A stretch of DNA of 37,885 nt from Spiroplasma poulsonii (GTDB taxonomy: Bacteria; Bacillota_I; Bacilli_A; Mycoplasmatales; Mycoplasmataceae), in NCBI RefSeq assembly GCF_009866525.1, contig NZ_CM020866.1, positions 156,586 to 194,470 on the forward strand, given 5' to 3'. A program made the position numbers and the translations under genes. The stretch's first letter is position 1; each line of letters opens with the position of its first letter. The notes below the pieces were generated by a model. That model ran no database searches, was not told the DNA's origin, and saw only the letters and a program-made list of their open reading frames with translations. Shown one piece after another: positions 3,988-33,632 of the stretch.

Positions 3988-4488
3988 TTAACTTTCATAA
4001 TTAGCAATAATAATTGCATCTCGTAAATGATTACTTATTTTTTCATTATTATATTTTCAACTTTTACCATATTGATAAGTTAAATTAACATCTTTTTCAT
4101 ATTTTCATATATAACCATCATTATATTTACTTAAATTTTCCATATTTTTAACAACTGATTTTGTATGTTTTGGTGAAATAGTAGCAATATATCCTTGCGT
4201 TTCTAATGAACCTAATAATTTCAATAAATCATCTCTATCTTTTGAGCCATTGGCATTTGTATATAAACAATTTTCTATAAAAATTAAATATTCTAGTTTA
4301 TGATTATTTGATAATATTTTCCCAAATAGTTTTTCATTTTTCAAATAATTTATAATAAATTCATAATGTTCTTTTCAGCCTTTATTTGTAAATTCTTGTT
4401 TATCTATTAATTTATTATTTTTATAAACAACAATAGCCGTAGTACCAGTTCCTGATGGGTCAATACCTATTTTTATCAATTGGCTCAT
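3988..4488 (-). CDS. RuvC-like Holliday junction resolvase (166 aa)
   Basis: The protein has the layout of a RuvC/RNase H-fold endonuclease. It starts with an IKIGIDPSGTG strand that places the first catalytic acid at Asp10, has a second acid at Glu72 in LIFIEN, and ends with NHLRDAIIIA, which supplies the last acid, Asp157, with His154 nearby, as in RuvC. Length (166) fits the family. Such enzymes cut four-way DNA junctions. It overlaps the end of the recT gene by 16 bases, so the two are probably translated together and act on the same recombination intermediates. A free-standing phage RuvC beside RecT is known from tailed phages; here it lies in a plectrovirus-like setting. Confidence 0.8.
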
Positions 4489-5402
4489 TCTTCATCATTG
4501 TTATTATTAACTACTGGTACTACATTTGATATATCTTCTTCTTTAACTACATTATAGTTTATGTCCACTATTTCATCATTAGGTGGGGTATTATAATTTA
4601 AATTTATATTATTTGATAAAGTTTCATCGTTAATATGCCCATTATTTTGGATGAAAGTAGCATCATTATCAATATAAATCTTTTCATCATTAGTTGTAAT
4701 AACTGCTTGATCTGATTTATATGCTTGTTGTAATTCAACTGACATAATACCTCATTTTCTTAATAATGATGTTAATACTGTTTTAAGGGCCATTTCATCA
4801 AAACTAGCAATATAAAATGATTTATTTTTAGCATAAGTTTTAGAATATTTCATAAAATGATTTTCCATTTGCTCTTTTGTCATATATAAAGTTTTTTCAA
4901 AACCATTAACCATTTTAAAATATGCTACATAACCTATAATTGATAATTTTTCTCGTTCATCTTCATTTTGATTTCAATTAAAAGCAGTACCTTTTAAACG
5001 ATCATAATTTATTAATTCATTTGCTCTAACATCTGATACTGACATATCTAAATATTGGCCACTTCTTTGGGCTAATTGAATATAACCTTTATAACCCATT
5101 TGAAATTGGGCTTGATTAATTCATTCTTGGATTTCACGACCATTAATAATTCTTGTTATTTTTGTATTATATGGTACTACATAAGCATAACCGAATTGTT
5201 TTTCCATTGGTAAATTTAATAAAACACCTTGATAACAAGCAGTCATAATTGTTTTTGGATCTGCTTTTTGTAATAATTCATTACTATTTGATATTGCAAT
5301 TATATTACTTTTAAATCTTGCAATTTCATTTTCATTAGAAAATTTACTTTTTATTCAATCAGTTACCTTATCTGTTCTTAAAAATTCTACAATATTTGTC
5401 AT
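4473..5402 (-). CDS. recT: RecT-family single-strand annealing protein (309 aa)
   Basis: Read with TGA as Trp this is one gene. The RecT signature is clear: an ACYQGVLLNLP segment (about residues 55-65), a VVPYNT stretch, a GYKGYIQLAQRSG segment (103-115) and a MALKTVLTSLLRKWGIMS helix (204-221). The C-terminal 80 residues are acidic and Asn-rich, typical of low-complexity tails in this family. RecT binds single-stranded DNA and pairs complementary strands during phage recombination and replication. The start at 5402 has GGAGAA eight bases upstream. No exonuclease partner (RecE or YqaJ type) is visible next to it. Confidence 0.92.
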
Positions 5403-7634: not shown

Positions 7635-8064
7635 AATTTATTATTCTTATTCAATTTCCGAGTTTTTTTCCAAAACCCCAATATTTTTTATACGACCTAT
7701 ATTTAGCATAAGTATCTCAATTTTTATATAAATCCATAAACTCATCACTAGGCTTATCAAATGAAATCCCAGTTGAATAACTATCCTTTAAAAAGTCTAA
7801 ATATCATTTATCATTATAAGTTAATGTTTGTAATGTTTTTAAAGTTGGGTTAATAAAATAATTTGTTTCTGACCAGTTTTCAAAAAAACTACTGCGTAAA
7901 AACATTGTATTAATAAAATCAGTTTCATTCATTCCCGTTGTTTGTTGATTAACAGTATAATTCTGCTGATTTAAGGGTTTAAATGCTGTTAAAGTAATAA
8001 ATGGAATAATTAAACCTAAAATACCTAAAATAGATATCGCAAATAAAGATAATGACTTACGCAT
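7633..8064 (-). CDS. Phage protein with N-terminal membrane anchor (143 aa)
   Basis: The first 28 residues form a hydrophobic segment after MRKS, which may be a signal anchor; the rest is polar with many aromatic residues and four TGA Trp codons. It overlaps the upstream gene by eight bases and is the last gene before the terminator. In filamentous phages such one-anchor proteins are minor virion proteins, but no specific family is recognised. Confidence 0.65.
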
Positions 8065-17634: not shown

Positions 17635-18258
17635 ATGAGTAATTTAATTAATTTTAATCGGTTTGTTTCTTTTACAACAATTGAAGGTCCGGGAAACCGG
17701 TTTGCCTTATGAATGCAAGGATGCATTATTAATTGCAAAGGATGTAGTAACCAAGAGATGATTCCTTTAATTAATCGGAATGTAATGGAAGTTAGTGAAC
17801 TTTTCAAAGCAATTAAAGATGCGCAAGAGCGCTTTCAAATTGAAGGAATTACAATTTTGGGGGGCGAACCGTTTATTCAACCACGGGCATTATTGGAATT
17901 AGTGACGTTGTGTCAAGCAAACAATTTAACAGTAATTGTTTTTTCCGGTTTTTTATACGAACTATTGCAAGAAAAACACCCGGAAATTTTAACTAAAATC
18001 GATATCCTAATTGATGGGCCATTTATTATTGAAAAACTAGACAAAAAACGGCGTTTAATTGGTTCAACCAATCAACGAGTAATTAAACTAAGTGATACTT
18101 ATCAAAATAATGATTATTTTGAACAAAATATTATTGAAGCTGAATTTACTGTTACTAAAAATAATAGTATGATTATTAATGGCGATGGTGCACACCTCGT
18201 CAACAATGAGAAAACAATTTTAACAAAAGAGGAGGACAAAGAAGATGGGAACATTTAA
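17635..18258 (+). CDS. Radical SAM activating-enzyme-like protein (207 aa)
   Basis: Cys30, Cys34 and Cys37 form the C-x3-C-x2-C site for a 4Fe-4S cluster that cleaves S-adenosylmethionine, in MQGCIINCKGC. GGEP at 76-79 is the SAM-binding motif. Short length and TIEGPGNRFALW before the cluster are typical of activating enzymes such as NrdG and PflA, which put a glycyl radical on a partner enzyme. No such partner gene (nrdD or pflB type) lies in this window; its neighbours are a Clp-like ATPase and a thiol peroxidase. The stop overlaps the next start by 14 bases. Fe-S cluster supply from the suf operon nearby would be needed. The substrate is unknown. Confidence 0.85.
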
Positions 18259-18745
18259 ACTAGATGGTGATGTGTTTTTACATATTAAACAAGATATTAT
18301 TAAAGTTGGGGATAAATTAGAATTTAAAGCAATAAATGGTGATATGAGTGATTTTCATATCGATGATGTTAGAGCAAAATATAAAGTTATTTCGTCAATT
18401 CCAAGCATTGATACTAGTGTTTGTTATACTCAAACAGTTAAGTTTAATGAAAGTATGAAAGATTATAATAATGCTCGTTTAATTACGATTTCAAGAGATT
18501 TACCATTTGCGCAAGAAAGATGTTGTAAATCATTTAAAGATGAAGCACATTTCTTAATTTCAGATTATAATTATCGAGACTTTGGGGCAAAATCAGGATT
18601 AGTTTTCACTGATTCACAAATTTTACCATGAGCTGTAATAATTTTAAACGAAGACAATATTGTTGAATATCTTGAAGTTGTGAATCCGGTTGGTAATGAA
18701 TCAAATTACCAAGCAGTATATGACTTTTTAAGTAGTAAAAAATAA
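18245..18745 (+). CDS. tpx: Thiol peroxidase, Tpx type (166 aa)
   Basis: An atypical 2-Cys peroxiredoxin that reduces hydroperoxides with electrons from thioredoxin. The peroxidatic site is IPSIDTSVC, with Cys60 and the Thr three residues before it. The resolving Cys lies in LPFAQERCCKSF (Cys93; an extra Cys94 follows). Length matches the family (165-170). GAGGAC is the ribosome binding site inside the radical SAM gene, and the start overlaps that gene by 14 bases, so expression is coupled. Its presence points to oxidative stress protection, perhaps of the oxygen-sensitive cluster of its operon partner. Confidence 0.92.
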
Positions 18746-18773
18746 AAAAAGTATTGATAAAATACTTTTTTTA
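18744..18773. terminator. Bidirectional terminator between tpx and HIT genes
   Basis: AAAAAAAGTATT and AATACTTTTTTT pair around GATAA. A-run and T-run on the two sides allow termination in both directions between the converging genes. Confidence 0.85.
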
Positions 18774-19187
18774 TTTTAAAGTTAAAAGTTCTTTGATCTC
18801 ATCAAGGTCCCGTAGCTTTTCTTTATCAATGTTTAGTTTAAAACCATAGCCTTCTTCTTTTTTATATTTTGGAATAACATGAAGATGATAGTGAAAGACT
18901 TGTTGAAAAGCTTCACTTTTTTCATTAATAACGTAGTTAATTCCAACAGGTTTTAAAACTTGATACATTTTTTGGGCAACTTTTTTTCCAACTTTTGCAA
19001 CAGCAGCTAAATGTTCATCATCTGTTTCACTATAATAATCAAAGTGTTTTTTTGGAATTATTAAGGTGTGACCATCACTATTTGGAAATAAATCTAAAAA
19101 AGCGTAAACAAGATCATTTTCATAGATTTTTTTACTCGGAATTTCTTGGGCAATAATTTTACAAAAGATGCAATCACTTTTGTTCAT
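18771..19187 (-). CDS. HIT-family nucleotide hydrolase (138 aa)
   Basis: The histidine triad H-x-H-x-H lies at His99, His101 and His103 in FHYHLHVIP. An N-terminal CIFC (Cys6, Cys9) is typical of the Hint/HinT branch. These enzymes hydrolyse AMP from amino groups, such as aminoacyl-adenylates and phosphoramidates. Length is normal. AAGGAG lies ten bases before the ATG and a TATAAT (19218-19213, minus strand) about 25 bases upstream is a good -10 box. Confidence 0.92.
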   Translation of the reverse strand: MNKSDCIFCKIIAQEIPSKKIYENDLVYAFLDLFPNSDGHTLIIPKKHFDYYSETDDEHLAAVAKVGKKVAQKMYQVLKPVGINYVINEKSEAFQQVFHYHLHVIPKYKKEEGYGFKLNIDKEKLRDLDEIKELLTLK

Positions 19188-19673: not shown

Positions 19674-19702
19674 ATAAAAAAAGAAGATTTTTAATCTTCT
19701 TT
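19674..19702 (-). terminator. Terminator of the lipoprotein genes
   Basis: AAAGAAGAT pairs with ATCTTCTTT; on the minus strand a T-run follows. The lipoprotein stop codon lies inside the stem. Confidence 0.8.
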
Positions 19703-21385
19703 AACAATAAATGATTCAATTGCATCAAATAAAGTTTGCGAGTAAACATTTTCTGGATTATAACCAAAGGCTAATGAATATAGTCTTGTTTTTGCTGCGG
19801 TTTGCAAATCACTAAACTGAGCAAAAGTATATTCAATTCACTTTAAGATTTGTCCTTTAACATTTGGCACGTTTGTTGGAATTCCGTCTTTATCATAAAG
19901 GGCATTTCCATTTTCATCATATGTTCCTAAATAACCTGTTTGATTATATAATCATGATAATGAACGTTTAGCGCCTCCTTGTTGTGATACTCATGCTTGG
20001 TCTAGGTTGGCTGGTGTTCCTCCTGACCCATATCAAGTTAATGATAATGGTTTGTTATTTGTCTTAGTATTTTGATAATTAATGTTCATATTTTTCATTA
20101 AGTCAATTGTATAAATTGGTAAGACTAGAACAACTGATCCATATCTTCGGTTAGCATCTAAAAACTGATAACTTGAAGGACTTGTTCCTTCCCCTGATTT
20201 AATAATCCCTGGTGTTGCGGTTTCAATAATTTTTTGTTTATATGCATCAGCATTATTTAGGGTTGTAAAGATTTCATTTTTACTTTTATTGATTCCAACA
20301 AAACCTTTAAAGCCACTAAGGCCAAAGATTGGGTCAATTCCTTCGTTAATCATATTTTTAAATTCATCACCATTTTTGGCATTAAACATATTTTTTAAGT
20401 TAGCTGTTAGAATATCTTCTTTGTTTGTTAAATCAGTATTTAAAGTTGCAACATTTTCTAATGCTCCACCAGTCTCGAATAGTTTATCTAAACTAGCTTT
20501 ATCTAATTTTAATTCTCAAACCATCTTAACATATGAATTTCAACGAGCACCACTAATTGTGTCTCATGATTGAATGGCATTAAATAAGGCACTGTTACGA
20601 TTTAAATAAATTTCTGTATTATCACCACTACCATAACGTTTAATTTCGTTTTGGTGTAAATAGGTTGCAGTAATAATTTTATCAATTACAGCTGGGACTT
20701 CAACATGTTTATAATAATCATTAAAACGAATTTTTAAAGCAATTTTCTTTTCATCTTCTGTCATTTTATTGAAGTCAGTATAGTCATTTCCTGCAGGTTT
20801 AATTTTAATCTCAAAGTTATTTTCCCCTTGATCTTTTTGTGATTTCGTATAATCAGGTGATATTGTGGTTGATTTTCAGAAATATGATTGGACTCCTCCA
20901 ACAAATCATTTTTCTGATTGGTAATCAGGTGCATATCCTTGGCCAGCAATTATTAATTCTAATGGTGTATAATTTGATATTCCAGTTAAATATTTCGTGT
21001 ACAAATTATCAAGAGCAACTTGTTCCACAAAACTAACAATTTGTTTTGCTAATTCATTTTCTGGCTTACTAACATCAATTGTTACTCCAGTATAACGAGC
21101 TCTTGTTGCTTCTTCTGAGGCATAGAAGAATTTCGAAATATTAGTATCTAATAATCGGACAGCCATTGTTTTTAGGTCCGCTTTTGTAAAAATATCATTA
21201 AATGAATATTTTACGTAACTTGATTGATTTTCTGAATCAATTTGGGCAATAATTCAACGTTTAACTTCAACAGCAATTGCTGGGTCAGTAAAACGCTCAA
21301 AGTTCTTTTTCCCACAAGCAACAACAGTGGTGCTGGCAGAAGTAACAATTGTTATTGCACCTAAGATGCTTAATAATTTTTTCAT
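19691..21385 (-). CDS. Large lipoprotein, second gene of the pair (564 aa)
   Basis: The N-terminus has the form of a Spiroplasma lipoprotein signal: two Lys, a hydrophobic core and a lipobox ending in VVACGKK, with the modified Cys at residue 24. The rest is a long polar, Asn/Lys/Ser-rich extracellular domain with many TGA Trp codons and no known motif. ATG 21385 shares a base with the stop of the upstream lipoprotein gene (TAATG). Such proteins sit on the outside of the membrane in these wall-less bacteria and may bind ligands, host factors or transporter subunits; which of these applies cannot be read from sequence. Confidence 0.85.
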
Positions 21386-23658
21386 TATCTTCTACCTCCT
21401 ATTGTGCTAAAGTCATCACGATATCAATTTTGATCACCATTATTATAATATTTTGTTTTATCTTTTTCTCAAGTTTTAAATTGATGTAATCAAAAGGCAG
21501 TTTGAGTAGAGCTAGTATGAAGTCCTGAATAATTTGTTTTAATTTGTTCATCTCAATATTTTGATTGAGCAATTTTATCGACAATAGCTTTTGTTTTAAT
21601 TTCTGCGGCGGGTCCACCAGTTTTATAGCCTTGAATCGTTTTGTTTTCTGCTTCAAAACTACTATATAAACGTTGAACTGCTCCTCCTGATAAGTTTGTT
21701 GTCATTGCGCTAATAATTAACGTAAATCAATCAGCATTATCGTGTCCTTCACCATCTTTAAAAGTAATAAAGTTTTTTAATCATTGGTCAGGACCTGCTC
21801 CATTTTGTAAAATTTTATTATTGAAAAAGTCATAAGTTCAGAATCATCATGTTTTATCATCAGCTGAACCAGAAGATGAAGACAATGTCGCGTATTTCTT
21901 AACCTCGTCTAAAACTTTAAATTTAAGTTTGCTAGTACTATCGTTATTAACTAAACTACGGTTTGTTAAATACCATAAATATTGGGCATTAGCAAATTGT
22001 GTATTCATTTTTTGTTGTGCTTTATCTGTTGTCATAATTTGTGATTTATCAGACATTGCTTTATATGAAATGTTTGAATAATTTAAACTTTTAAATTGTC
22101 AATCACTATTATAAGGACTATATAATGTTGCGGTTGCGTCAGCTAAATATTCACGACCATCAAGATGAACTAAATTTAGTCCATTTGTGTCAAAGAAGGC
22201 AACTACCATATCTTTAGTGTTACCGACTGTTCAGTTTCCACTAATTGAATCGGCAGTAGCTTTTCTCCCAATAGCAGTTACTGCTGCATCTAAATCAACA
22301 ACTGGTGCTGTTGATGTAGCGCCAATACTATCATAAACACTTGCTTTTAAAATATTCGATTTAACAGCATCCGCTTGTGTACTTAATGTTAATAAGTCTG
22401 TTGATGGTGTTGCAGTTCCTTTACTATTGTTAATAAAATCATCTCAACTTGGTGCGGTTTTTAAAGCAGTTAAATCAGTATTAATTTGATTTTGGGTGTT
22501 TTCATCAAAACTATCTTTTGTAAAACCAGTATCAGTTGGTGTTACTCCCGATTTAAAGGCATAAGTTATTTTTGAAATAGCTAGCGGTTTTTCGTTTTGG
22601 AATCAGTTTTCAATAAGATATTTTTGAAATAATGAATATTGTCCAGAATCATATGATTGTGATAAAAATGGTTTTCCAATTGATGTTTTACTTGCATCAG
22701 CAAAAACAGGTGTTGCTACTGGTGGGAATTTAACCATATATTTAGTAACATCATAACCTTCTGTTTTTAAATTTCCGGCAATTGTGTCTAAACGAGTATT
22801 AATTGCATCAATTGTTAATTGACTTAAATCTGCACCAAAACTTCCACTTGTATTATCTCAACTAAAAGCTAAAGCTACTTGTGTTCGTGAGTTTTGATCA
22901 CTAGTATTTCAATCTTTTGCTTGTCCTCCGCCTTTAAGAAAATCAGCGAAAGAACTTAATTTAATTACTGATGTATCAGTTGTATTAGTTTGATATGTTC
23001 GCATATTATTATTTAATAGAATGTTAGTTAACATTTGTGTTCCACTAATTCCTCCATCAGCACCGGTTGTCATAATAGTGGCTTTATAATTCTGCTCTTC
23101 AATCTCATATTTTTTATTTCCACTAGCACCAGTAATATCTTTATAATTTAAATCTAAAAAATCATGATATTTTTTTTCTCAATTTTTTTGGTCGCTATCT
23201 TTAAAACTTTGTTTCTTTTTCTCAACAATATTGTTTGTGTTTTGAACTAATAAATTTCATTGGTCTTTTAAAATGTCTTTTAAATCTTTATAGTCTGCAA
23301 TATCACCAACTGTTGTTTGAGCAGTTGGAAAAAATTTATCTGGATTAGCTAAAGCTGCCACATTTAAAATTTGCGTTAATTGCACTGACATTTTAGTTCT
23401 TGTTGGTCCATCTCATTGTGATGGATCATTTGTTCATGTTCCATTCCCCGCATCAACAAAGGGATTTGCTAAAACACTTCAAATATCAGGGGAAGTAATT
23501 TGTTTTCCACCATAAATTCCTGGGAGTCAAGCTCAAATACTATCACCATTCCCATTTTTATGTTGATTGTTATTTTCTTTATTACTACATGCCACTACCC
23601 CAGAAGTTGTTGCCCCGACTATTACCACACTGCTAAGTACTGATAAAAGTTTCTTCAT
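21385..23658 (-). CDS. Large lipoprotein, first gene of the pair (757 aa)
   Basis: Signal peptide with lipobox VVACSNKE, Cys24 being the lipid anchor, at the same place as in the following gene. The mature part is long, rich in Thr, Ser, Asn and Asp. It includes short stretches such as WAWLPGIYGGKQIT near the N-terminus and a Gly-rich DGGISGTQML segment in the middle, reminiscent of loops in secreted binding proteins, but no family can be named. AAGGAAGGATG lies just upstream of the ATG. The pair of overlapping lipoprotein genes is transcribed away from the suf operon from a promoter inside the palindrome region at 23,738-23,782. Confidence 0.85.
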
Positions 23659-23740
23659 TTTGGTTCATCCTTCCTTTTGACTTATTATTTTTTGTACTTT
23701 TTGATAAAAAAATACTAAGTACATTCTATTAAAAATTTAT

Positions 23741-23782
23741 AATAAAGTCTACTTTTATTGTACAATAAAAGTAGACTTTATT
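23741..23782. promoter_or_regulatory. 42-bp perfect palindrome between lipoprotein and suf genes
   Basis: Each 21-base half (AATAAAGTCTACTTTTATTGT) is the exact reverse complement of the other. On the minus strand its centre supplies TTGTAC as a -35 box, 18 bases before a TATAAA -10 box, for the lipoprotein pair. On the plus strand TATAAT (23738-23743) overlaps its left edge, so suf mRNA made from there would carry it as a hairpin. It may be a regulator's site, a transcription-blocking hairpin, or both. Confidence 0.75.
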
Positions 23783-23847
23783 TTTAAAAAAATAAAGATA
23801 TTTCACTTGAAAATAACGAAAGAAGCTCTTATAAAGGAGGAGTAAAA

Positions 23848-24663
23848 ATGCAAAAGATTGAGATAAAAGATTTATTTGTTTCTGCTGATAATGAGATGAT
23901 TTTAAATGGTTTAAATTTGACTGTTAATATTAATGAAATTCACGCTTTAATGGGGCCAAATGGAAATGGAAAATCAACTTTGTTATCAACAATTATGGGA
24001 CACCCTAGTTACACGGTGGAAAGTGGGGATATTTTAATTGATGGTGAAAGTATTTTAAATAAAACAGTTGATGAACGCAGCAAAATGGGTGTCTTTTTTG
24101 CAATGCAGTCACCAGTTGAAATTTCTGGAGTTTTAAATTTAGACTTTTTAAAAGTAATTATTAATGCTCATCGCGATGCTCCAATTAAGTTACCACAATT
24201 ATATAATGACATTAATCATAATATTAAAAATTTAAAAATTGATGATAGCATGATTCGCCGTTATTTAAATACTGGTTTTTCTGGTGGAGAAAAGAAAAAA
24301 AATGAAATTTTACAATTAAACTTATTAAAACCAACATTGGCTTTAATCGATGAAATTGATTCGGGGTTAGATGTTGATGCTTTGAATGTTGTTAGTGCTG
24401 AATTAAATAAAATGCGGCAAGAAAATTTTTCAGCAATTATTGTTTCACATTATGATCGTTTTTTTAATTTGGTCCAGCCAACCCATGCCCATGTCATTGT
24501 TAAAGGGAAAATTGTTAAAAGTGGTGATTATAGTTTAGTTAAAAAGATTAATGAAGAGGGTTATGAATGATTATTGCAGGAATTAAACTTAACATTTGAT
24601 AATAAAAAAGCAGAAGCAAAACCTTTGACGGGGATTGGCTGTGCTGCGCAAAAAGGAAAATAA
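23848..24663 (+). CDS. sufC: SufC, ATPase of the iron-sulfur cluster scaffold (271 aa)
   Basis: ABC-type ATPase with Walker A GPNGNGKST (36-44), Q-loop in FFAMQSPVEISG (about 83-94), signature FSGGE (144-148), Walker B ALIDEIDSGLD (165-175) and switch His in IVSHYDR. The SufC hallmark GEKKKNE is present. SufC powers the SufB-SufD scaffold on which 4Fe-4S clusters are built. The frame continues through a TGA Trp codon at 24568, giving about 30 extra C-terminal residues that end GIGCAAQKGK. AAAGGAGGAG is a perfect ribosome binding site. First gene of sufCDSUB. Confidence 0.95.
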
Positions 24664-24665
24664 CA

Positions 24666-25499
24666 ATGCGAGTTTTACTGAATCAGCAAGAAGAAATTAT
24701 TAGTGATAATCTTTTGATTAATGATACAACACAAAACTTAACGATTGAAAATACTAATCCTGGGCAAGTTATTAATCTTAATTTTTCAACTAATCTTTCT
24801 AATAAAACTTTTTTAATTTTTTTAAATTTAACTGCCGAAGCAACCATTAACTATAATATTCCTGCTCAAGATCAAATTAACATTATTAATATTTATAAAA
24901 ATCGTGAATGTGAGCAAGTTGCTAATCTTTTTTATAATGTGCTAGAAAAAACCCATGTTAATGTTTATAATTTAAACATTGTTAATAGTAATATTACCGA
25001 AAATGTTACTTTTAATTTACAAGGCAAGCGTAGTACGCTTAAATATTATCTCGCAAGTTTGGTAACGCATGATTATCAAAAAAATGCAATTATTTATGCA
25101 CACCATTTAGCGCCCGCAACTGAAAGTGATATTAAAACATATTCAATCGCAAAGGATAATTCATTACAAACCATTAAATGTACTAGTCACATTGAGAAAA
25201 CAATGAGTAAATCAGAGGCTCATCAAGAGTTACGATTATTAGTTTTTGATAAGACTTCAAAAGCAATTTCTGATCCAATTTTATTGATTGATGAAAACGA
25301 CATTAAGGCAAGCCATGCCAATGCTGTGGGAATGTTAGACCCTGACCAAATCTTTTATTTACAAACAAGAGGTTTAACAGTTAATCAGGCACGAAAATTA
25401 ATTTGCATGGGTTATTTTAAAAATGTGATTGATGCAATTGAGGATGAAACAGTACAAAAAAATATTATTGATGAAATTGATAAAGAAATTGGAGAATAA
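24666..25499 (+). CDS. sufD: SufD-like scaffold protein (277 aa)
   Basis: Short for a SufD (usually 400 or more), but its C-terminal half has the SufB/SufD core: a beta-helix-type region, then ASHANAVGMLDPDQIFYLQTRGL (split over residues 217-239), where the His and the LQTRGL turn are conserved, and a closing helix DEIDKEIGE. The N-terminal region common in other bacteria is reduced. It begins two bases after sufC and ends two bases before sufS. SufD pairs with SufB in the SufBC2D complex and helps iron entry. Confidence 0.87.
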   Translation: MRVLLNQQEEIISDNLLINDTTQNLTIENTNPGQVINLNFSTNLSNKTFLIFLNLTAEATINYNIPAQDQINIINIYKNRECEQVANLFYNVLEKTHVNVYNLNIVNSNITENVTFNLQGKRSTLKYYLASLVTHDYQKNAIIYAHHLAPATESDIKTYSIAKDNSLQTIKCTSHIEKTMSKSEAHQELRLLVFDKTSKAISDPILLIDENDIKASHANAVGMLDPDQIFYLQTRGLTVNQARKLICMGYFKNVIDAIEDETVQKNIIDEIDKEIGE

Positions 25500-25501
25500 A
25501 T

Positions 25502-26731
25502 ATGATTGATTATAAAAAAATTAGAGCAGAATTTCCTTTTTTTAAAAATAATGCTGATCAAATTTATCTTGATAGTTCAGCAACTAGTTTAAAACCACAA
25601 GTTGTGATTGATGCGATTAATAATTATTATACTCACTATGGAACTAATCCTCATAATACTGATAGTGATTTAGGGTATGAAACAAATGTGCAATATGAAA
25701 CAATTCGTGGTAAGATTAAGCATTTTATTAATGCTAAAAAAGATCAAGAAATTATTTTTACGTCGGGAACAACATATAGTTTAAACCAAATAGCTTATGG
25801 GTTAAGCGACCTTATTCATGCCGGAGATGAAATTTTAATTACAAAACAAGAACATGGGGCAAATATTTTACCATGGTATCGTTTAGCATCAGAAAAAAAG
25901 GGTTATGTTAAATTTTTACCAGAAAAAAATTTTAGCATCGATTTAGAACAATTATCAAAAGTGATTACTGCTAAGACAAAAATAGTTTCTTTTGCTAATG
26001 TTCCCAATATTTTAGGTTATGAAAATAATCCGATGGTAATTATTGCAATGATTAAAAAAATTAATCCTGAAATAATTGTTGTGGTTGATTGTGCGCAAGG
26101 AATTATTCATATGCCAACTGATGTTCAAAAATGAAATGCTGATTTTATTACTTTTTCTGCTCATAAAATTTTTGGGCCAACTGGAATTGGAATTTTATGA
26201 GGAAAAGAAGAATTATTATTGAAACTAAAACCATTAATTGTTGGTGGCGGAATGAATGCTCGGATTGAAGGCAACGGGTCAGATTATCTTTTAAAGGGAT
26301 TACCAGACCGATTAGAAGCGGGATCACCTAATATTGCTGATATTTTTGGTTTTGGAGCAGCGATTGATTTTGTTAATCGACTTACATTAAAAGAAATTAT
26401 TAGTTACACTCATCAGTTAAAACAATATGCGCTTGAGCAATTTAATCAAAAATTAAAAGATAAGGTTATTATTTATAATGCTGATGCTAAAGCGGGAACA
26501 TTGGTGTTTAATGTAAAAGATGTTTTTTGTCAAGATGTTGCGACGCATATCGGTAGTCGTAACAAAATTACAGTTCGAAGCGGTGATCATTGTGCTCGGT
26601 TAATTGGAGAAATTATTCCGGATAAAAATACAATTCGTGTTAGTTTTTCAATTTACAACAGTTATGAAGATATTGATTTATTAGTAACAGCCCTTGCTAA
26701 TGAAACCGCTTTTTTGGGAAGGTTGGTTTAA
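25502..26731 (+). CDS. sufS: SufS cysteine desulfurase (409 aa)
   Basis: A PLP-dependent group II desulfurase that takes sulfur from cysteine. The PLP Lys is Lys222 in FSAHKIFGPTG, after a TGA Trp at 211. Other family features are DSSATSLKPQ at the start, FTSGTTYSLN, EHGANILPW and DCAQG. The catalytic Cys364 lies in RSGDHCAR. Length is normal. It ends directly before the sufU ATG with no gap. The SufU partner follows, as in Gram-positive relatives. Confidence 0.95.
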
Positions 26732-27187
26732 ATGGAATTTGATAAAAATGATCCAATGTTTTTACGGCAAATTATTATGGAACATTATTCAGAACCACAA
26801 TATAAGGGGTTAACGAAAGAAGCCAGCGCACACTCAATTCATCAAGCTTCAGAATCATGTATTGATGATATTCATTTAGAATTAATAGTGGCCGACCAAA
26901 AAATTATGATGGCACGATTTGATGATGTTGGTTGTGCAATTTCAACTGCATCAACAGATATTATGGCGCAGGAATTAGAAGGAAAAACCATTCGTGATGG
27001 TTTAGCGATTATTGATAATTATTTTGCAATGGTTTTTGATAAACCATATGATGAGACAAAGTTAAACGAACTAGTTGCATTTATTAATATTGCAAAACAA
27101 CCTAACCGAATTAAATGTGCTACAATTGGTGTCACTGGTTTTCAAACTTTATTATTAAATTTATTAGATCCAAGTAACAAAAAATAA
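26732..27187 (+). CDS. sufU: SufU, zinc-dependent sulfur transfer protein (151 aa)
   Basis: The zinc ligands expected in SufU are present: Cys43 and Asp45 (in SESCIDDI), Cys68 (VGCAIS) and Cys129 (RIKCAT). The usual CGDRI is changed to CIDDI, retaining Cys and Asp. The 18-20 residue insert that separates SufU from IscU is present (about residues 85-105). SufU takes the persulfide from SufS and passes it to SufB. The gene starts immediately after the sufS stop. Confidence 0.93.
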   Translation: MEFDKNDPMFLRQIIMEHYSEPQYKGLTKEASAHSIHQASESCIDDIHLELIVADQKIMMARFDDVGCAISTASTDIMAQELEGKTIRDGLAIIDNYFAMVFDKPYDETKLNELVAFINIAKQPNRIKCATIGVTGFQTLLLNLLDPSNKK

Positions 27188-27201
27188 AGGAGGTGTTATT
27201 A

Positions 27202-28614
27202 ATGTCAAAGTTAAAACAAGAAAAACAAATTAAAGAAATTTCTAATTATAAATATGGTTTTAATGACGGAGATATTTCTTACTATAACACGGGGAAAGGT
27301 CTTAATGAAGATATTATTAATGAAATTTCAGATCATAAAAATGAACCAGCGTGAATGCGCGAATATCGCTTACAATCATATAGTAATTTCTTAAAAATTA
27401 ATAACCCAAGTTGGGGACCAAATTTAGAATTTATGAATTTTGATGATTATGTTTACTATATTAAACCAACTGATCACATTGCTACAAAATGAGAAGAAGT
27501 ACCAGAAAAAATTAAAAATACTTTTGATCGGTTGGGATTACCAGCAGCGGAACGAGATTATTTAGCAGGGATAAAAGCTCAATATGATAGTGAGCCGGTT
27601 TATGGTAGTATGTTAAAAGAAGTTGAAGAAAAAGGGGTTATCTTTTTAGATTGTGATACGGCGTTGCGTGAACATCCTGAGTTATTTAAGAAATACTTTG
27701 GGACATTAGTTCCAAATACAGATAATAAATATGCCGCTTTAAATAGTGCCGTGTGGTCAGGCGGTTCATTTATTTATGTTCCGAAAGGAGTTAAATTGGA
27801 AAAACCATTACAAGCTTATTTCCGAATTAATTACGAGAACAGTGGACAGTTCGAACGAACATTAATTATTGTTGAAGATGATGCTGAATTAAATTATATT
27901 GAAGGATGTACTGCGCCAATTTATTCTCGTGATTCTTTGCATGCCGCAATTGTTGAAATTTTTGTTGGGAAAAATGCTAAAATGCGTTATACAACAGTTC
28001 AAAATTGAAGTGACAATGTTTTAAACTTAGTAACAAAACGAAGCATTATTGAAGAAAATGGCCAAATGGAATGAATCGACGGTAATATTGGGTCAAAAAT
28101 TAATATGAAATATCCAAGTGTTATTTTGAAAGGAAACAATAGTAAAGGACAGTGTATTTCGATTGCTGTTGCAAAAGAAAATGTCATTCAAGATGCCGGT
28201 TCAAAAATGATTCATTTGGGGAAAAATACTTCTTCAAAAATTATTTCAAAATCAATGACCTTTAATGGTGGAACAGCAAATTATCGTGGTTTAGTTCACA
28301 TTGGACCAAAAGCTCAATATTCAAAAGCACGGGTTGAATGTGACACCTTAATTTTAGATGGGAAATCACATTCAGATACAATTCCACAAAATAAAGTTTA
28401 TAATAATGAATCACAAATTGAACATGAAGCTACTGTTAGTAAAGTTTCTGAAGAACAATTATTTTATTTACAAAGTCGCGGGTTATCGGAACAAGAAGCT
28501 TTAGAAATGATTATAATGGGGTTTTTAGAACCTTTTACAAGAGAATTACCAATGGAATATGCTGTTGAATTGAATCAATTAATTAAGATGGATATGGAAG
28601 GCAGTGTTGGTTAA
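27202..28614 (+). CDS. sufB: SufB scaffold protein (470 aa)
   Basis: Core scaffold on which the cluster forms. AAAGGAGGTG precedes the ATG. Typical SufB segments are seen in order: YKYGFNDGD near the N-terminus, [26 protein letters not shown] (Cys of the conserved EGC motif), RYTTVQNW (Trp as TGA), and near the end [20 protein letters not shown]. Full length for the family. Five genes in the order C, D, S, U, B, with almost no gaps, make a complete SUF system, needed among others by the radical SAM protein at 17,635. Confidence 0.95.
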
Positions 28615-28770
28615 TGGCCGTTGTTGATAAACAATAGATTCGACAAGAAAAGCTGCTGGCTCGGCAAAACATTGCTTTATCATTACGTCATCAAAAAGAG
28701 CAACAAATTTTTGATTGTTTTTTTAATAATAATATGATCCAAAATAGTAAAAATATTGCCCTTTATTATT
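28614..28770 (+). pseudogene. 5-formyltetrahydrofolate cyclo-ligase-like gene, 5' fragment
   Basis: ATG 28614 overlaps the last base of sufB. A TAG stop occurs after seven codons, but the frame then continues with IRQEKLLARQNIALSLRHQ and ends KNIALYY at the IS insertion. Arg-x-x-x-Leu-x-x-Arg near the start and an IALY strand are the opening of 5-formyl-THF cyclo-ligase (about 180 residues). Only some 50 codons remain; the rest was not found beyond the IS pair. The gene is therefore broken by a stop, an insertion and a deletion. Confidence 0.6.
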
Positions 28771-29706
28771 AGACTTCTTGCGATACCCTTTTTATTAAAA
28801 TATTATTATAAAATATAATTTATGAGGACATAAAAATATGAACAATAATAAATTTAATACTCTTAATGATAGAGAATGGTTAAGATTAACAGGAATAAAA
28901 AAATCCACTTTTAATAAAATGTTAGATATTTTAAAAGTTGCTGAAATAGAAAAATTTAAAAAAGGTGGTAAAACTAATAAATTATCATTAGAAAATAGAT
29001 TATTGATGACTTTATTATATTGACGAGAATATCAGACTTATTTTCATCTTGGTAAAAGTTTTGATATTAGTGAGGCTAATTGTTATCGTAATATTAAGTG
29101 AATTGAATATATTTTAATTAAAAACTCTGATTTTCAACAACTTGCTGGTAAAAAAGCACTAATAAATGATTATTTTAATGATAAAACTATTATTATTGAT
29201 GCTACCGAAACTCCAATCCAACGCCCAAAAAAAGACAAAAACAATCTTATTCTGGTAAAAAGAAAAAACACACGATCAAAACACAAGTAATTATCGAACA
29301 AGAAACCAAAAAAATTATTGCAACAAGTTTTTCGCTCGGAAAAAAACATGATTATGCTTTATTTAAAGAATCAAAAATCCCAATTTTAAAAAATACCAAA
29401 TTAATAGTTGATAGTGGTTATCAAGGAATACAAAAAAATCACAATAATGTTCTAATACCTACAAAGAAAACAAAGAAAAACCCTTTAAACAAAGAACAAA
29501 AGCAATATAATAGACTAGTTTCAAAAATGAGAATTATTATTGAAAATATTTTTGCTATTCTTAAAAAATTTAAAATTATTACAGAAAAATATCGTAATCG
29601 AAGAAAAAGATTTGGTTTAAGATTTAATTTAATTGCCTCAATTTATAATTTACAATTATTATATTTAACATAAAATATTTATTTAAAATTAAATAATTTA
29701 AATAAT
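28771..29706 (+). mobile_element. IS5-family element, copy B (936 bp, right end missing)
   Basis: Left end AGACTTCTTGCGATACC is intact and flanked by ATT (28768-28770). About 130 bp of the right end, including the terminal repeat, are absent: at 29,707 the inverted copy C begins directly. The transposase gene is complete, so copy B may supply enzyme but could not move as a unit. Confidence 0.9.
28838..29673 (+). CDS. IS5-family transposase, copy B (two frames joined by -1 frameshift)
   Basis: Same organisation as the transposase of copy D at 31,283, where it is described in full. Both frames are intact here; one difference is Tyr in place of Asp in the KWIEDIL helix (codon TAT). Confidence 0.88.
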
Positions 29707-30773
29707 AGACTTCTTGCATTACTTGTTAAAAAATTGCAAATATTTGTAAAAAAGATACTAATAGAAAAATATAATTTTAATTAATTATGTTTTTTATTTA
29801 AAAATTTAATATTTTTCCACAACGAAAAATTAATTTATTATTTAAATTATTTAATTTTAAATAAATATTTTATGTTAAATATAATAATTGTAAATTATAA
29901 ATTGAGGCAATTAAATTAAATCTTAAACCAAATCTTTTTCTTCGATTACGATATTTTTCTGTAATAATTTTAAATTTTTTAAGAATAGCAAAAATATTTT
30001 CAATAATAATTCTCATTTTTGAAACTAGTCTATTATATTGCTTTTGTTCTTTGTTTAAAGGGTTTTTCTTTGTTTTCTTTGTAGGTATTAGAACATTATT
30101 GTGATTTTTTTGTATTCCTTGATAACCACTATCAACTATTAATTTGGTATTTTTTAAAATTGGGATTTTTGATTCTTTAAATAAAGCATAATCATGTTTT
30201 TTTCCGAGCGAAAAACTTGTTGCAATAATTTTTTTGGTTTCTTGTTCGATAATTACTTGTGTTTTGATCGTGTGTTTTTTCTTTTTACCAGAATAAGATT
30301 GTTTTTGTCTTTTTTTGGGCGTTGGATTGGAGTTTCGGTAGCATCAATAATAATAGTTTTATCATTAAAATAATCATTTATTAGTGCTTTTTTACCAGCA
30401 AGTTGTTGAAAATCAGAGTTTTTAATTAAAATATCTTCAATTCACTTAATATTACGATAACAATTAGCCTCACTAATATCAAAACTTTTACCAAGATGAA
30501 AATAAGTCTGATATTCTCGTCAATATAATAAAGTCATCAATAATCTATTTTCTAATGATAATTTATTAGTTTTACCACCTTTTTTAAATTTTTCTATTTC
30601 AGCAACTTTTAAAATATCTAACATTTTATTAAAAGTGGATTTTTTTATTCCTGTTAATCTTAACCATTCTCTATCATTAAGAGTATTAAATTTATTATTG
30701 TTCATATTTTTATGTCCTCATAAATTATATTTTATAATAATATTTTAATAAAAAATGGTATCGCAAGAAGTCT
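29707..30773 (-). mobile_element. IS5-family element, copy C (1,067 bp)
   Basis: Full-length copy in minus orientation, with both 11-bp terminal repeats. Its outer side is flanked by ATT (30774-30776), which matches the ATT left of copy B, whereas its inner end joins the interior of copy B. So the B-C pair behaves as one insertion at a single ATT site. Confidence 0.92.
29870..30705 (-). CDS. IS5-family transposase, copy C
   Basis: Intact frames with the slippery A7-G site, as in copy D. Confidence 0.88.
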
Positions 30774-30808
30774 ATTTAATAAAAAATAAAAACTAATTTG
30801 AATTACAA

Positions 30809-30979
30809 CTAAAAAACAATTGCCAAGGTTTTTTTAACTTTTATTTTTAAAACAGAAAGATTAGTAATATATGAAGCAAGATAAAGAACCGCAAAAAAAA
30901 CTAAGATTTTAACAATAAAAAGTAATAATGCTAAATCAAGATATTTAAACCCCAAAAGTGTAGAAATTAATTTGTCCAT
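30809..30979 (-). CDS. Small membrane protein (56 aa)
   Basis: ATG 30979 begins a short protein with one long hydrophobic region (about residues 14-40) and a basic end. It uses no TGA. The ribosome binding site AAGG is weak. It lies between two IS pairs and may be an intact small gene or the N-terminal part of a longer one. No family recognised. Confidence 0.45.
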   Translation of the reverse strand: MDKLISTLLGFKYLDLALLLFIVKILVFFAVLYLASYITNLSVLKIKVKKTLAIVF

Positions 30980-31077
30980 TTTTATACCTTGTCTTTTTCA
31001 AATTCTTTCCGGCATTTTTTATTATTATATATATTTATTTACAAAAATGCAAAAAATTTTTTTAAAAAAATAAATGT

Positions 31078-31137
31078 TATAATTAAAATGCAGTTGATAA
31101 TTTAAAAAATTATTAACATTAAAAGGATTCAGGAGGT
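31078..31137 (+). promoter_or_regulatory. Promoter and ribosome binding site of the IS-split gene
   Basis: TGTTATAAT (31075-31083) is an extended -10 box; CAGGAGG (31131-31137) lies 11 bases before ATG 31149. Expression signals of the interrupted gene are therefore intact. Confidence 0.6.
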
Positions 31138-31214
31138 ATAAAAAATAAATGTTACCAGAAAAAATTGATATTTTTATTGACGAACATATTGATAAACCTT
31201 TATCAGAATATATT

Positions 31215-32281
31215 AGACTTCTTGCGATACCCTTTTTTATTAAAATATTATTATAAAATATAATTTATGAGGACATAAAAATATGAACAATAATAAATTT
31301 AATACTCTTAATGATAGAGAATGGTTAAGATTAACAGGAATAAAAAAATCCACTTTTAATAAAATGTTAGATATTTTAAAAGTTGCTGAAATAGAAAAAT
31401 TTAAAAAAGGTGGTAAAACTAATAAATTATCATTAGAAAATAGATTATTGATGACTTTATTATATTGACGAGAATATCAGACTTATTTTCATCTTGGTAA
31501 AAGTTTTGATATTAGTGAGGCTAATTGTTATCGTAATATTAAGTGAATTGAAGATATTTTAATTAAAAACTCTGATTTTCAACAACTCGCTGGTAAAAAA
31601 GCACTAATAAATGATTATTTTAATGATAAAACTATTATTATTGATGCTACCGAAACTCCATTCCAACGCCCAAAAAAAGACAAAAACAATCTTATTCTGG
31701 TAAAAAGAAAAAACACACGATCAAAACACAAGTAATTATCGAACAAGAAACCAAAAAAATTATTGCAACAAGTTTTTCGCTCGGAAAAAAACATGATTAT
31801 GCTTTATTTAAAGAATCAAAAATCCCAATTTTAAAAAATACCAAATTAATAGTTGATAGTGGTTATCAAGGAATACAAAAAAATCACAATAATGTTCTAA
31901 TACCTACAAAGAAAACAAAGAAAAACCCTTTAAACAAAGAACAAAAGCAATATAATAGACTAGTTTCAAAAATGAGAATTATTATTGAAAATATTTTTGC
32001 TATTCTTAAAAAATTTAAAATTATTACAGAAAAATATCGTAATCGAAGAAAAAGATTTGGTTTAAGATTTAATTTAATTGCCTCAATTTATAATTTACAA
32101 TTATTATATTTAACATAAAATATTTATTTAAAATTAAATAATTTAAATAATAAATTAATTTTTCGTTGTGGAAAAATATTAAATTTTTAAATAAAAAACA
32201 TAATTAATTAAAATTATATTTTTCTATTAGTATCTTTTTTACAAATATTTGCAATTTTTTAACAAGTAATGCAAGAAGTCT
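31215..32281 (+). mobile_element. IS5-family element, copy D (1,067 bp, complete)
   Basis: Ends AGACTTCTTGC and GCAAGAAGTCT are perfect 11-bp inverted repeats, with ATT on both sides (31212-31214, 32282-32284). The 3-bp ANT duplication and the two-frame transposase fit the ISL2-like branch of IS5. About 150 bp of AT-rich DNA lie between the transposase stop and the right end. Confidence 0.95.
31283..32118 (+). CDS. IS5-family DDE transposase made by -1 frameshifting (278 aa)
   Basis: The first frame (31283-31735) encodes 150 residues: an N-terminal helical DNA-binding part (NDREWLRLTGIKKSTFNKM) and the first catalytic Asp in IIIDATETP. The second frame carries SYSGKKKKHTIKTQVII, the second Asp in LIVDSGYQGI and the Glu in RIIIENIFAILKKF. 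They meet at A-AAA-AAA-G in codons CCA AAA AAA GAC, a classic slippery site for -1 frameshifting. The fused protein is of normal length for the family. This copy has Phe for Ile in the TPIQRP stretch. TGA is read as Trp in LLYWREYQTYF. Confidence 0.92.
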
Positions 32282-32428
32282 ATTAAAGAAAATCCACGGT
32301 TTATTTTAGAGTTTGTTAATAATTTAAACTGAGAAGAAAAATTTGAATTAATTTCTGATTATGTTGCAACAAACGAAGAAATTGAAAAAGCAATTAACAC
32401 ATTAAATAAATATATATTTTTATTTATT

Positions 32429-33495
32429 AGACTTCTTGCATTACTTGTTAAAAAATTGCAAATATTTGTAAAAAAGATACTAATAGAAAAATATAATTTT
32501 AATTAATTATGTTTTTTATTTAAAAATTTAATATTTTTCCACAACGAAAAATTAATTTATTATTTAAATTATTTAATTTTAAATAAATATTTTATGTTAA
32601 ATATAATAATTGTAAATTATAAATTGAGGCAATTAAATTAAATCTTAAACCAAATCTTTTTCTTCGATTACGATATTTTTCTGTAATAATTTTAAATTTT
32701 TTAAGAATAGCAAAAATATTTTCAATAATAATTCTCATTTTTGAAACTAGTCTATTATATTGCTTTTGTTCTTTGTTTAAAGGGTTTTTCTTTGTTTTCT
32801 TTGTAGGTATTAGAACATTATTGTGATTTTTTTGTATTCCTCGATAACCACTATCAACTATTAATTTGGTATTTTTTAAAATTGGGATTTTTGATTCTTT
32901 AAATAAAGCATAATCATGTTTTTTTCCGAGCGAAAAACTTGTTGCAATAATTTTTTTGGTTTCTTGTTCGATAATTACTTGTGTTTTGATCGTGTGTTTT
33001 TTCTTTTTACCAGAATAAGATTGTTTTTGTCTTTTTTTGGGCGTTGGATTGGAGTTTCGGTAGCATCAATAATAATAGTTTTATCATTAAAATAATCATT
33101 TATTAGTGCTTTTTTACCAGCAAGTTGTTGAAAATCAGAGTTTTTAATTAAAATATCTTCAATTCACTTAATATTACGATAACAATTAGCCTCACTAATA
33201 TCAAAACTTTTACCAAGATGAAAATAAGTCGGATATTCTCGTCAATATAATAAAGTCATCAATAATCTATTTTCTAATGATAATTTATTAGTTTTACCAC
33301 CTTTTTTAAATTTTTCTATTTCAGCAACTTTTAAAATATCTAACATTTTATTAAAAGTGGATTTTTTTATTCCTGTTAATCTTAACCATTCTCTATCATT
33401 AAGAGTATTAAATTTATTATTGTTCATATTTTTATGTCCTCATAAATTATATTTTATAATAATATTTTAATAAAAAAGGGTATCGCAAGAAGTCT
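32429..33495 (-). mobile_element. IS5-family element, copy E (1,067 bp, complete)
   Basis: Complete copy in minus orientation with both terminal repeats and ATT on each side (32426-32428, 33496-33498). It differs from copies C and D at only a few positions, so the burst of transposition is recent. Confidence 0.95.
32592..33427 (-). CDS. IS5-family transposase, copy E
   Basis: Both frames are intact, including the slippery site; a few substitutions relative to copy C (for example in the YQTYF and GYQGI regions). Otherwise as copy D. Confidence 0.88.
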
Positions 33496-33632
33496 ATTGA
33501 AGATGAAATTAAAGAACGTGTCATCCAAAATATTTCAGAAGAAGAATATTTACGCCATAAAGCAATTATCGAAATATATGAAAAAGCTAAAAATGAATTA
33601 GAATTGAGTAAAAAAGGAAATTCTAATTAATA

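What the first reader, a model, noticed from the sequence alone, without database searches (positions are those of the whole stretch)
23738..23782. 42-bp perfect palindrome shared by the suf operon and lipoprotein promoters
Such a long exact palindrome is very unlikely by chance. Its centre coincides with a -35 box for the lipoproteins and it would lie in the suf leader. It could link Fe-S supply and surface lipoprotein expression through one regulator, for example a metal- or redox-sensing one. No known operator motif is matched.
Basis: partly seen in the sequence, partly recalled or inferred. Interest (0 to 1): 0.55.

Follow-up and report, generated by a model that had tools for sequence, protein, structure and literature searches.

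The report
Hyperconserved Spiroplasma palindrome between divergent operons
A long mirror-image DNA site between the genes that build iron-sulfur clusters and a set of surface lipoprotein genes is letter-for-letter the same in every species of this Spiroplasma genus that was examined and occurs once per genome, so it is probably a switch that controls one or both gene sets, although the protein that would bind it is unknown.

Summary
A 42-bp perfect palindrome lies at window 23741-23782, between divergent sufC (+) and a lipoprotein gene (-). Its 32-bp core is present without mismatch, exactly once, in 14 of 14 genomes of the genus, always upstream of sufC, and in 0 of 306 other genomes of the order (up to 3 mismatches). 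A 37-bp block is identical in all 14; the next longest block shared by the fourteen 16-kb neighbourhoods is 15 bp, while the flanking lipoprotein falls to 46% identity. No palindrome pair covaries, so the DNA letters are constrained, not just a hairpin. The operons are suf (sufCDSUB) and a hit-type locus (two lipoproteins, then HinT). Best reading: a single-site operator of one or both operons. Sister genera keep the gene pair but lack the site. The regulator is unidentified: no Rrf2 or TetR protein passes its cut-off in 60 family genomes; Fur is present but not genus-specific. Length alone is not special here: other perfect palindromes in this genome look like terminators.

The parts
23741..23782 (.). 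42-bp perfect palindrome (two 21-nt arms, no spacer), proposed operator
23746..23782 (.). 37-bp block identical in 14 of 14 species of the genus
23746..23751 (-). outer-arm TAGACT, -35-like hexamer of the lipoprotein (hit) operon
   Evidence: consensus match only
23723..23728 (-). TAGAAT, -10-like hexamer of the lipoprotein operon, 17 nt from the TAGACT
   Evidence: partner at 17 nt in 12 of 14, at 16 nt in 2 of 14
23772..23777 (+). outer-arm TAGACT pointing at suf, possible -35-like hexamer
   Evidence: inference; -10-like partner with 5 of 6 matches in 7 of 14 only, spacing 16-19
23797..23802 (+). GATATT, weak -10-like hexamer on the suf side
   Evidence: inference
23848..24663 (+). sufC, first gene of the suf operon
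   Evidence: TIGR01978 above cut-off
24666..28614 (+). sufD, sufS, sufU, sufB
21385..23658 (-). 757-aa lipoprotein gene (position of hitA/P80), divergent to sufC
   Evidence: start chosen by its ribosome-binding site
19691..21385 (-). 564-aa lipoprotein gene (position of hitB/P60)
18771..19187 (-). HinT (histidine-triad) gene

Best explanation
The palindrome is a DNA operator: a single-site, perfectly symmetric binding site for a sequence-specific regulator, most likely one or two protein dimers across about 3.5 helical turns. It controls the divergent suf (Fe-S cluster assembly) and hit (two lipoproteins plus HinT) operons, or at least one of them. Shown by calculation: existence, position, single copy, invariance across the genus, absence of covariation, absence from sister genera. 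Inferred: that a protein binds it; that bound protein covers the outward -35-like TAGACT of the hit promoter and so represses it, while sitting upstream of the suf start where it could repress or activate; that both operons answer to it.
For: The 32-bp core is exact and single-copy in 14 of 14 genus genomes. Thirty-seven of 37 columns are invariant, against 44 of 126 other ungapped intergenic columns (Fisher p about 3e-14, treating columns as independent). It is the longest exact block shared by all fourteen 16-kb neighbourhoods, the next being 15 bp, while the adjacent lipoprotein falls to 46% and SufC to 74% identity. It lies between divergent starts in 14 of 14. No pair in the palindrome covaries; apart from outer A-T pairs lost in two genomes, all are unchanged. 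The outer-arm TAGACT has a -10-like partner at 16-17 nt in 14 of 14. In G004 an 11-bp tandem duplication (about one helical turn) in the left arm keeps both an intact 32-bp palindrome and a TAGACT 17 nt from its -10. A comparable 42-bp palindrome of the same genome is found in only 2 of 14 genomes.
Against: No regulator was identified and no binding or expression data were seen. Invariance of every base over 37 bp, the centre included, is more than most dimer operators show (general knowledge). The half-site mixes G and C, unlike the predicted regulator sites of S. melliferum other than HrcA's as described in PMC5138195 (section 16). The suf-side promoter is poorly conserved, so control of suf is less well supported than control of hit. 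One site per genome means a regulator with one target, and no regulator gene was recognised among the neighbours scanned.
Confidence: 0.62

Rival explanations
1. It is a bidirectional intrinsic terminator that stops read-through between the two operons, as other perfect palindromes in this genome appear to be.
For: The scan calls a terminator-like hairpin on the minus strand; stable RNA hairpin, z -4.3; three of seven other long perfect palindromes in 400 kb lie between convergent genes.
Against: It lies between divergent starts in 14 of 14, with no gene end to terminate. The T tract is poor and not conserved. Terminators do not need fixed letters, yet no pair covaries.
Confidence: 0.08
2. It is an RNA hairpin in a leader (stability element, processing site or attenuator) of suf or hit mRNA.
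For: 19-bp stem with a 4-nt loop, -25.7 kcal/mol for a 126-nt stretch against a shuffle mean of -12.9.
Against: The -10-like hexamers found lie outside the palindrome on both sides, so it would not be transcribed from them (consensus only). No covariation in 14 species. No Rfam match in the window.
Confidence: 0.12
3. It is a chromosome-maintenance site (parS-like centromere, dif-like recombination site or similar) that happens to lie in this promoter region.
For: Exactly one copy per genome; within 16% of the contig length from dnaA in 13 of 14.
Against: In G011 it lies 43% of the contig away from dnaA, still in front of suf. It is in the suf-hit promoter region in 14 of 14. It was not found outside the genus. 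It matches neither the parS nor the dif consensus that I recall. ParB was not searched.
Confidence: 0.06
4. Cruciform extrusion of a supercoil-sensitive palindrome controls the two promoters without a dedicated protein.
For: Spacer-free perfect palindrome with a strong single-strand DNA fold, z -6.8.
Against: Extrusion needs pairing, not fixed letters (general knowledge); the letters are invariant.
Confidence: 0.05
5. It is a mobile-element or phage remnant.
For: The window and genome are rich in IS copies and phage-like genes; another 56-bp palindrome in the genome occurs as two copies with the same flanks.
Against: No copy elsewhere in the genome; none in viral contigs; fixed position in 14 of 14 species.
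Confidence: 0.02

Closest known systems
QacR IR1 operator (TetR family, Staphylococcus)
   Same: A large inverted repeat beside a divergent gene pair, bound by two dimers (passages of PMC3617543); its length of about 36 bp is recalled.
   Different: No TetR_N match reaches its cut-off in any of 60 family genomes, including all 14 of the genus. QacR is encoded next to its operator; no regulator gene was recognised here.
CIRCE / HrcA
   Same: A conserved inverted repeat at promoters; HrcA sites are known in Mollicutes (PMC5138195, sections 12 and 16 read).
   Different: Different letters; CIRCE as recalled has 9-bp arms with a 9-bp spacer, here 16-21-bp arms and no spacer.
IscR / Rrf2 control of suf operons
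   Same: Regulation of Fe-S assembly operons (general knowledge).
   Different: No Rrf2 match over the cut-off in any of 60 family genomes.
hitABL locus (P80-P60-HinT) of Mycoplasma hominis and relatives
   Same: Two membrane or lipoprotein genes followed by HinT (abstract and passages of PMC1173108).
   Different: Here it is divergent to suf and carries the palindrome; no sequence comparison with P80/P60 was run, so the match rests on gene order and HinT.
Terminator-like palindromes of this genome
   Same: Perfect palindromes of 36-42 bp.
   Different: Those lie between convergent genes; this one lies between divergent starts and is invariant across species.

Membership tests
Protein-bound operator (general) | Symmetric site overlapping or adjoining a promoter | tested here: inconclusive
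   symmetry met; promoter assignment by consensus only, and the scan's one hit is at chance level
Protein-bound operator (general) | Sequence conserved beyond its surroundings in relatives | tested here: met
Protein-bound operator (general) | Binds a regulator | not testable with these tools
   needs EMSA, pull-down or ChIP
QacR-type TetR operator | A TetR-family regulator is encoded in the genome | tested here: not met
   0 of 60 over cut-off; 5 of 60 weak, 2 of them in the genus
Rrf2/IscR regulon | An Rrf2-family regulator is encoded | tested here: not met
   0 of 60 over cut-off
Fur/PerR regulon | A Fur-family regulator is encoded | tested here: met
   57 of 60 genomes, 14 of 14 in the genus
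Fur/PerR regulon | Odd-centred 7-1-7 box (recalled) | tested here: not met
   sequence: even-centred palindrome without that box
CIRCE/HrcA | TTAGCACTC-N9-GAGTGCTAA (recalled) | tested here: not met
   sequence
Intrinsic terminator | Lies at the end of a gene | tested here: not met
   between divergent starts in 14 of 14
Intrinsic terminator | Stem followed by a T run | tested here: inconclusive
   reported on the minus strand only, tail ATAAATTTTT
parS / dif | Fixed place relative to origin or terminus | tested here: not met
   5-16% of the contig from dnaA in 13, 43% in G011
hit locus (hitABL) | Two membrane or lipoprotein genes upstream of hinT | tested here: met
   both lipoproteins in 14 of 14; HinT downstream of them within the 16-kb stretch in 13 of 14 (farther off in G008, G010, G012), not found there in G011

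The most novel reading that the evidence does not exclude
A genus-specific regulator of a kind not yet described for Fe-S control, with one invariant 37-bp target per genome, ties Fe-S cluster assembly to a HinT-linked surface lipoprotein complex. The link was added once, at the base of this genus, onto an older divergent gene pair.
Probability: 0.3. Interest if true: 0.65.

Novelty: new member of a known kind. Interest (0 to 1): 0.5.

Why it matters
Few regulators are known in Mollicutes, and no Rrf2 regulator was found here, so how Spiroplasma controls Fe-S assembly is open. An invariant, single-copy DNA site is a ready bait for isolating the missing protein, and it suggests that surface lipoproteins and Fe-S supply may be switched together. 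Its absence in sister genera that keep the same gene pair makes the gain of a regulatory link traceable.

Tried and rejected
Regulon search: half-site with up to 2 mismatches in the own genome; GTCTAC-N18-GTAGAC with up to 2 mismatches and the 20-bp core with up to 3 in 14 genomes. In one search, nine places other than the suf site matched, against 27 for the reversed-pattern control; the other matches all have 2 mismatches, do not resemble the palindrome in the middle (apart from one overlapping the G004 duplication) and are below the control. They were not followed further. One search used the wrong spacing (20 instead of 18) and is no test.

Named records: the 36-mer scan of genome contigs returned only two records, both titled Spiroplasma phoeniceum; their lengths equal contigs of G007 and G008. 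The other species of the genus did not appear; the tool says near records may be left out, so only absence from the records it searched can be read from it. A plasmid search with 301 bp gave nothing.

Regulator search: Rrf2, Fur and TetR_N in 60 family genomes. MarR, GntR, ArsR, Xre, MerR and ParB were not searched. Neighbouring proteins scanned include no recognisable regulator; DNA-binding domains seen were transposase and integrase ones.

Sister genera: of 30 genomes searched, 21 had a SufC match at E <= 1e-60. These 21 loci have no such palindrome; L050 has an unrelated 26-bp perfect one and L070 an imperfect one. Their best match to the half-site is 4-6 mismatches, as in shuffles.

Literature: searches on Spiroplasma with suf, SufC, Fe-S cluster, palindrome and promoter, operator and transcription starts, and on divergent promoters in Mollicutes, and one for a 24-letter stretch of the palindrome (0 papers), showed no description of it in their listings. 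Read: PMC5138195 (outline, passages, sections 12, 14, 16), and passages of PMC1173108, PMC3617543 and PMC5282649. The supplementary tables of PMC5138195, which should hold mapped S. melliferum starts, could not be read.

Full report
What is there. The window holds a 42-bp perfect palindrome at 23741-23782, between sufC (start 23848, +) and a 757-aa lipoprotein gene (start 23658, -). To the right the operon is sufC-D-S-U-B. To the left are two lipoprotein genes and HinT, the gene order of the hit locus of other Mollicutes (abstract and passages of PMC1173108; homology of the lipoproteins to P80/P60 was not tested).

Chance. By base composition, a perfect palindrome of this length is expected about 3e-5 times in 2 Mb. 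That figure overstates the surprise: seven other perfect palindromes with arms of 18-28 occur in 400 kb sampled from the same genome. Three lie between convergent genes, two are copies of one 56-bp repeat, and two lie in other settings. Long palindromes are thus a habit of this genome. One of the seven, 42 bp long, was looked for in the genus and found in 2 of 14 genomes.

Conservation. All 14 genomes of the genus have sufC. The 32-bp core was found without mismatch, once per genome, in 14 of 14, and in none of the other 306 genomes of the order with up to 3 mismatches (320 searched). A 37-bp block is shared exactly by all fourteen 16-kb neighbourhoods; the next longest shared block is 15 bp, in suf coding sequence. 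In the intergenic alignment 37 of 37 palindrome columns are invariant, against 44 of 126 others; pairwise identity of the rest averages 75% and falls to 54% (columns are not independent and species are related, so the p-value is only a guide). The lipoprotein falls to 46% and SufC to 74% identity. One genome, G004, has an 11-bp tandem duplication in the left arm and still keeps the 32-bp palindrome.

DNA rather than RNA. RNAalifold shows no covarying pair in the palindrome; the inner pairs are unchanged in 14 of 14 and only outer A-T pairs are lost, in two genomes. A hairpin alone would tolerate compensatory change. The single strand does fold strongly, so a hairpin is not excluded.

Promoters. 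On the lipoprotein side the palindrome's outer TAGACT has a -10-like hexamer with 5 of 6 matches at 17 nt in 12 genomes (including G004, through its duplicated copy) and at 16 nt in two. On the suf side a partner of TAGACT with 5 of 6 matches is present in 7 of 14, at 16-19 nt, and a second TATAAT-like site 56-57 nt from the centre in 8 of 14. The site therefore probably overlaps the hit promoter and adjoins the suf promoter. No transcription start was seen. This is consensus matching only, and the promoter scan by itself is at chance level (1 found, 1.5 expected).

Single site. No second copy or convincing near copy was found in the genus. A regulator using it would have one target.

Origin. 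In sister genera of the family, 21 of 30 genomes searched have a SufC match at E <= 1e-60. In 20 of these 21 a distant relative of the lipoprotein (22-27% identity) lies upstream on the opposite strand. None has the palindrome. The gene pair is therefore probably older than the site.

Regulator. No Rrf2 or TetR_N protein passes the cut-off in 60 family genomes. A Fur homologue is present in 14 of 14 genus genomes and in 57 of 60 overall, so its distribution does not match that of the site, and the palindrome is even-centred, unlike Fur boxes (recalled). The regulator is unknown.

Chromosome site. The palindrome lies 5-16% of the contig length from dnaA in 13 genomes and 43% in G011, which speaks against an origin- or terminus-bound role.

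Verdict. It is a real, strongly selected cis-element, most likely an operator for an unidentified regulator of the hit and probably the suf operon. It is a known kind of thing with unusual strictness and an unknown partner.

Noticed in passing
window 28614-28775: Directly after sufB the start of a 5-formyltetrahydrofolate cyclo-ligase gene is readable (my reading against the intact G009 protein) but has an in-frame stop and ends at an IS copy; G009 and G003 have an intact gene there.
   Followed up: partly
window 28770-33500: A cluster of nearly identical IS copies (150-aa HTH_Tnp_4 protein) in both orientations with ends reading GACTTCTTGC.
   Followed up: no
L109:16262-16303: Another 42-bp perfect palindrome, found in 2 of 14 genus genomes; possibly a younger operator or a terminator.
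   Followed up: partly
L111:6881-6936 and L102:8898-8953: A 56-bp perfect palindrome present as two copies with identical flanks, possibly part of a repeated mobile or phage-like element.
   Followed up: no
L106:5064-5105, L102:13092-13129, L109:5651-5686: Perfect spacer-free palindromes between convergent genes, suggesting bidirectional terminators of this form in the genome.
   Followed up: partly
window 17635-18745: An NrdG-like radical SAM activase and a thiol peroxidase lie convergent to HinT, so Fe-S and redox genes lie on both sides of the lipoprotein operon.
   Followed up: no
L011 (G004) upstream of sufC: An 11-bp tandem duplication, about one helical turn, inside the left arm of the palindrome.
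   Followed up: yes
L086 (G011): Neither HinT nor a proper SufB match was found in the 16-kb stretch of G011, the genome in which the locus also lies far from dnaA, so this region looks rearranged there.
   Followed up: no
window 4476-5402 and 7636-8064: A RecT-family gene and a fragment of a Spiroplasma phage ORF1-like gene, pointing to phage remnants.
   Followed up: no
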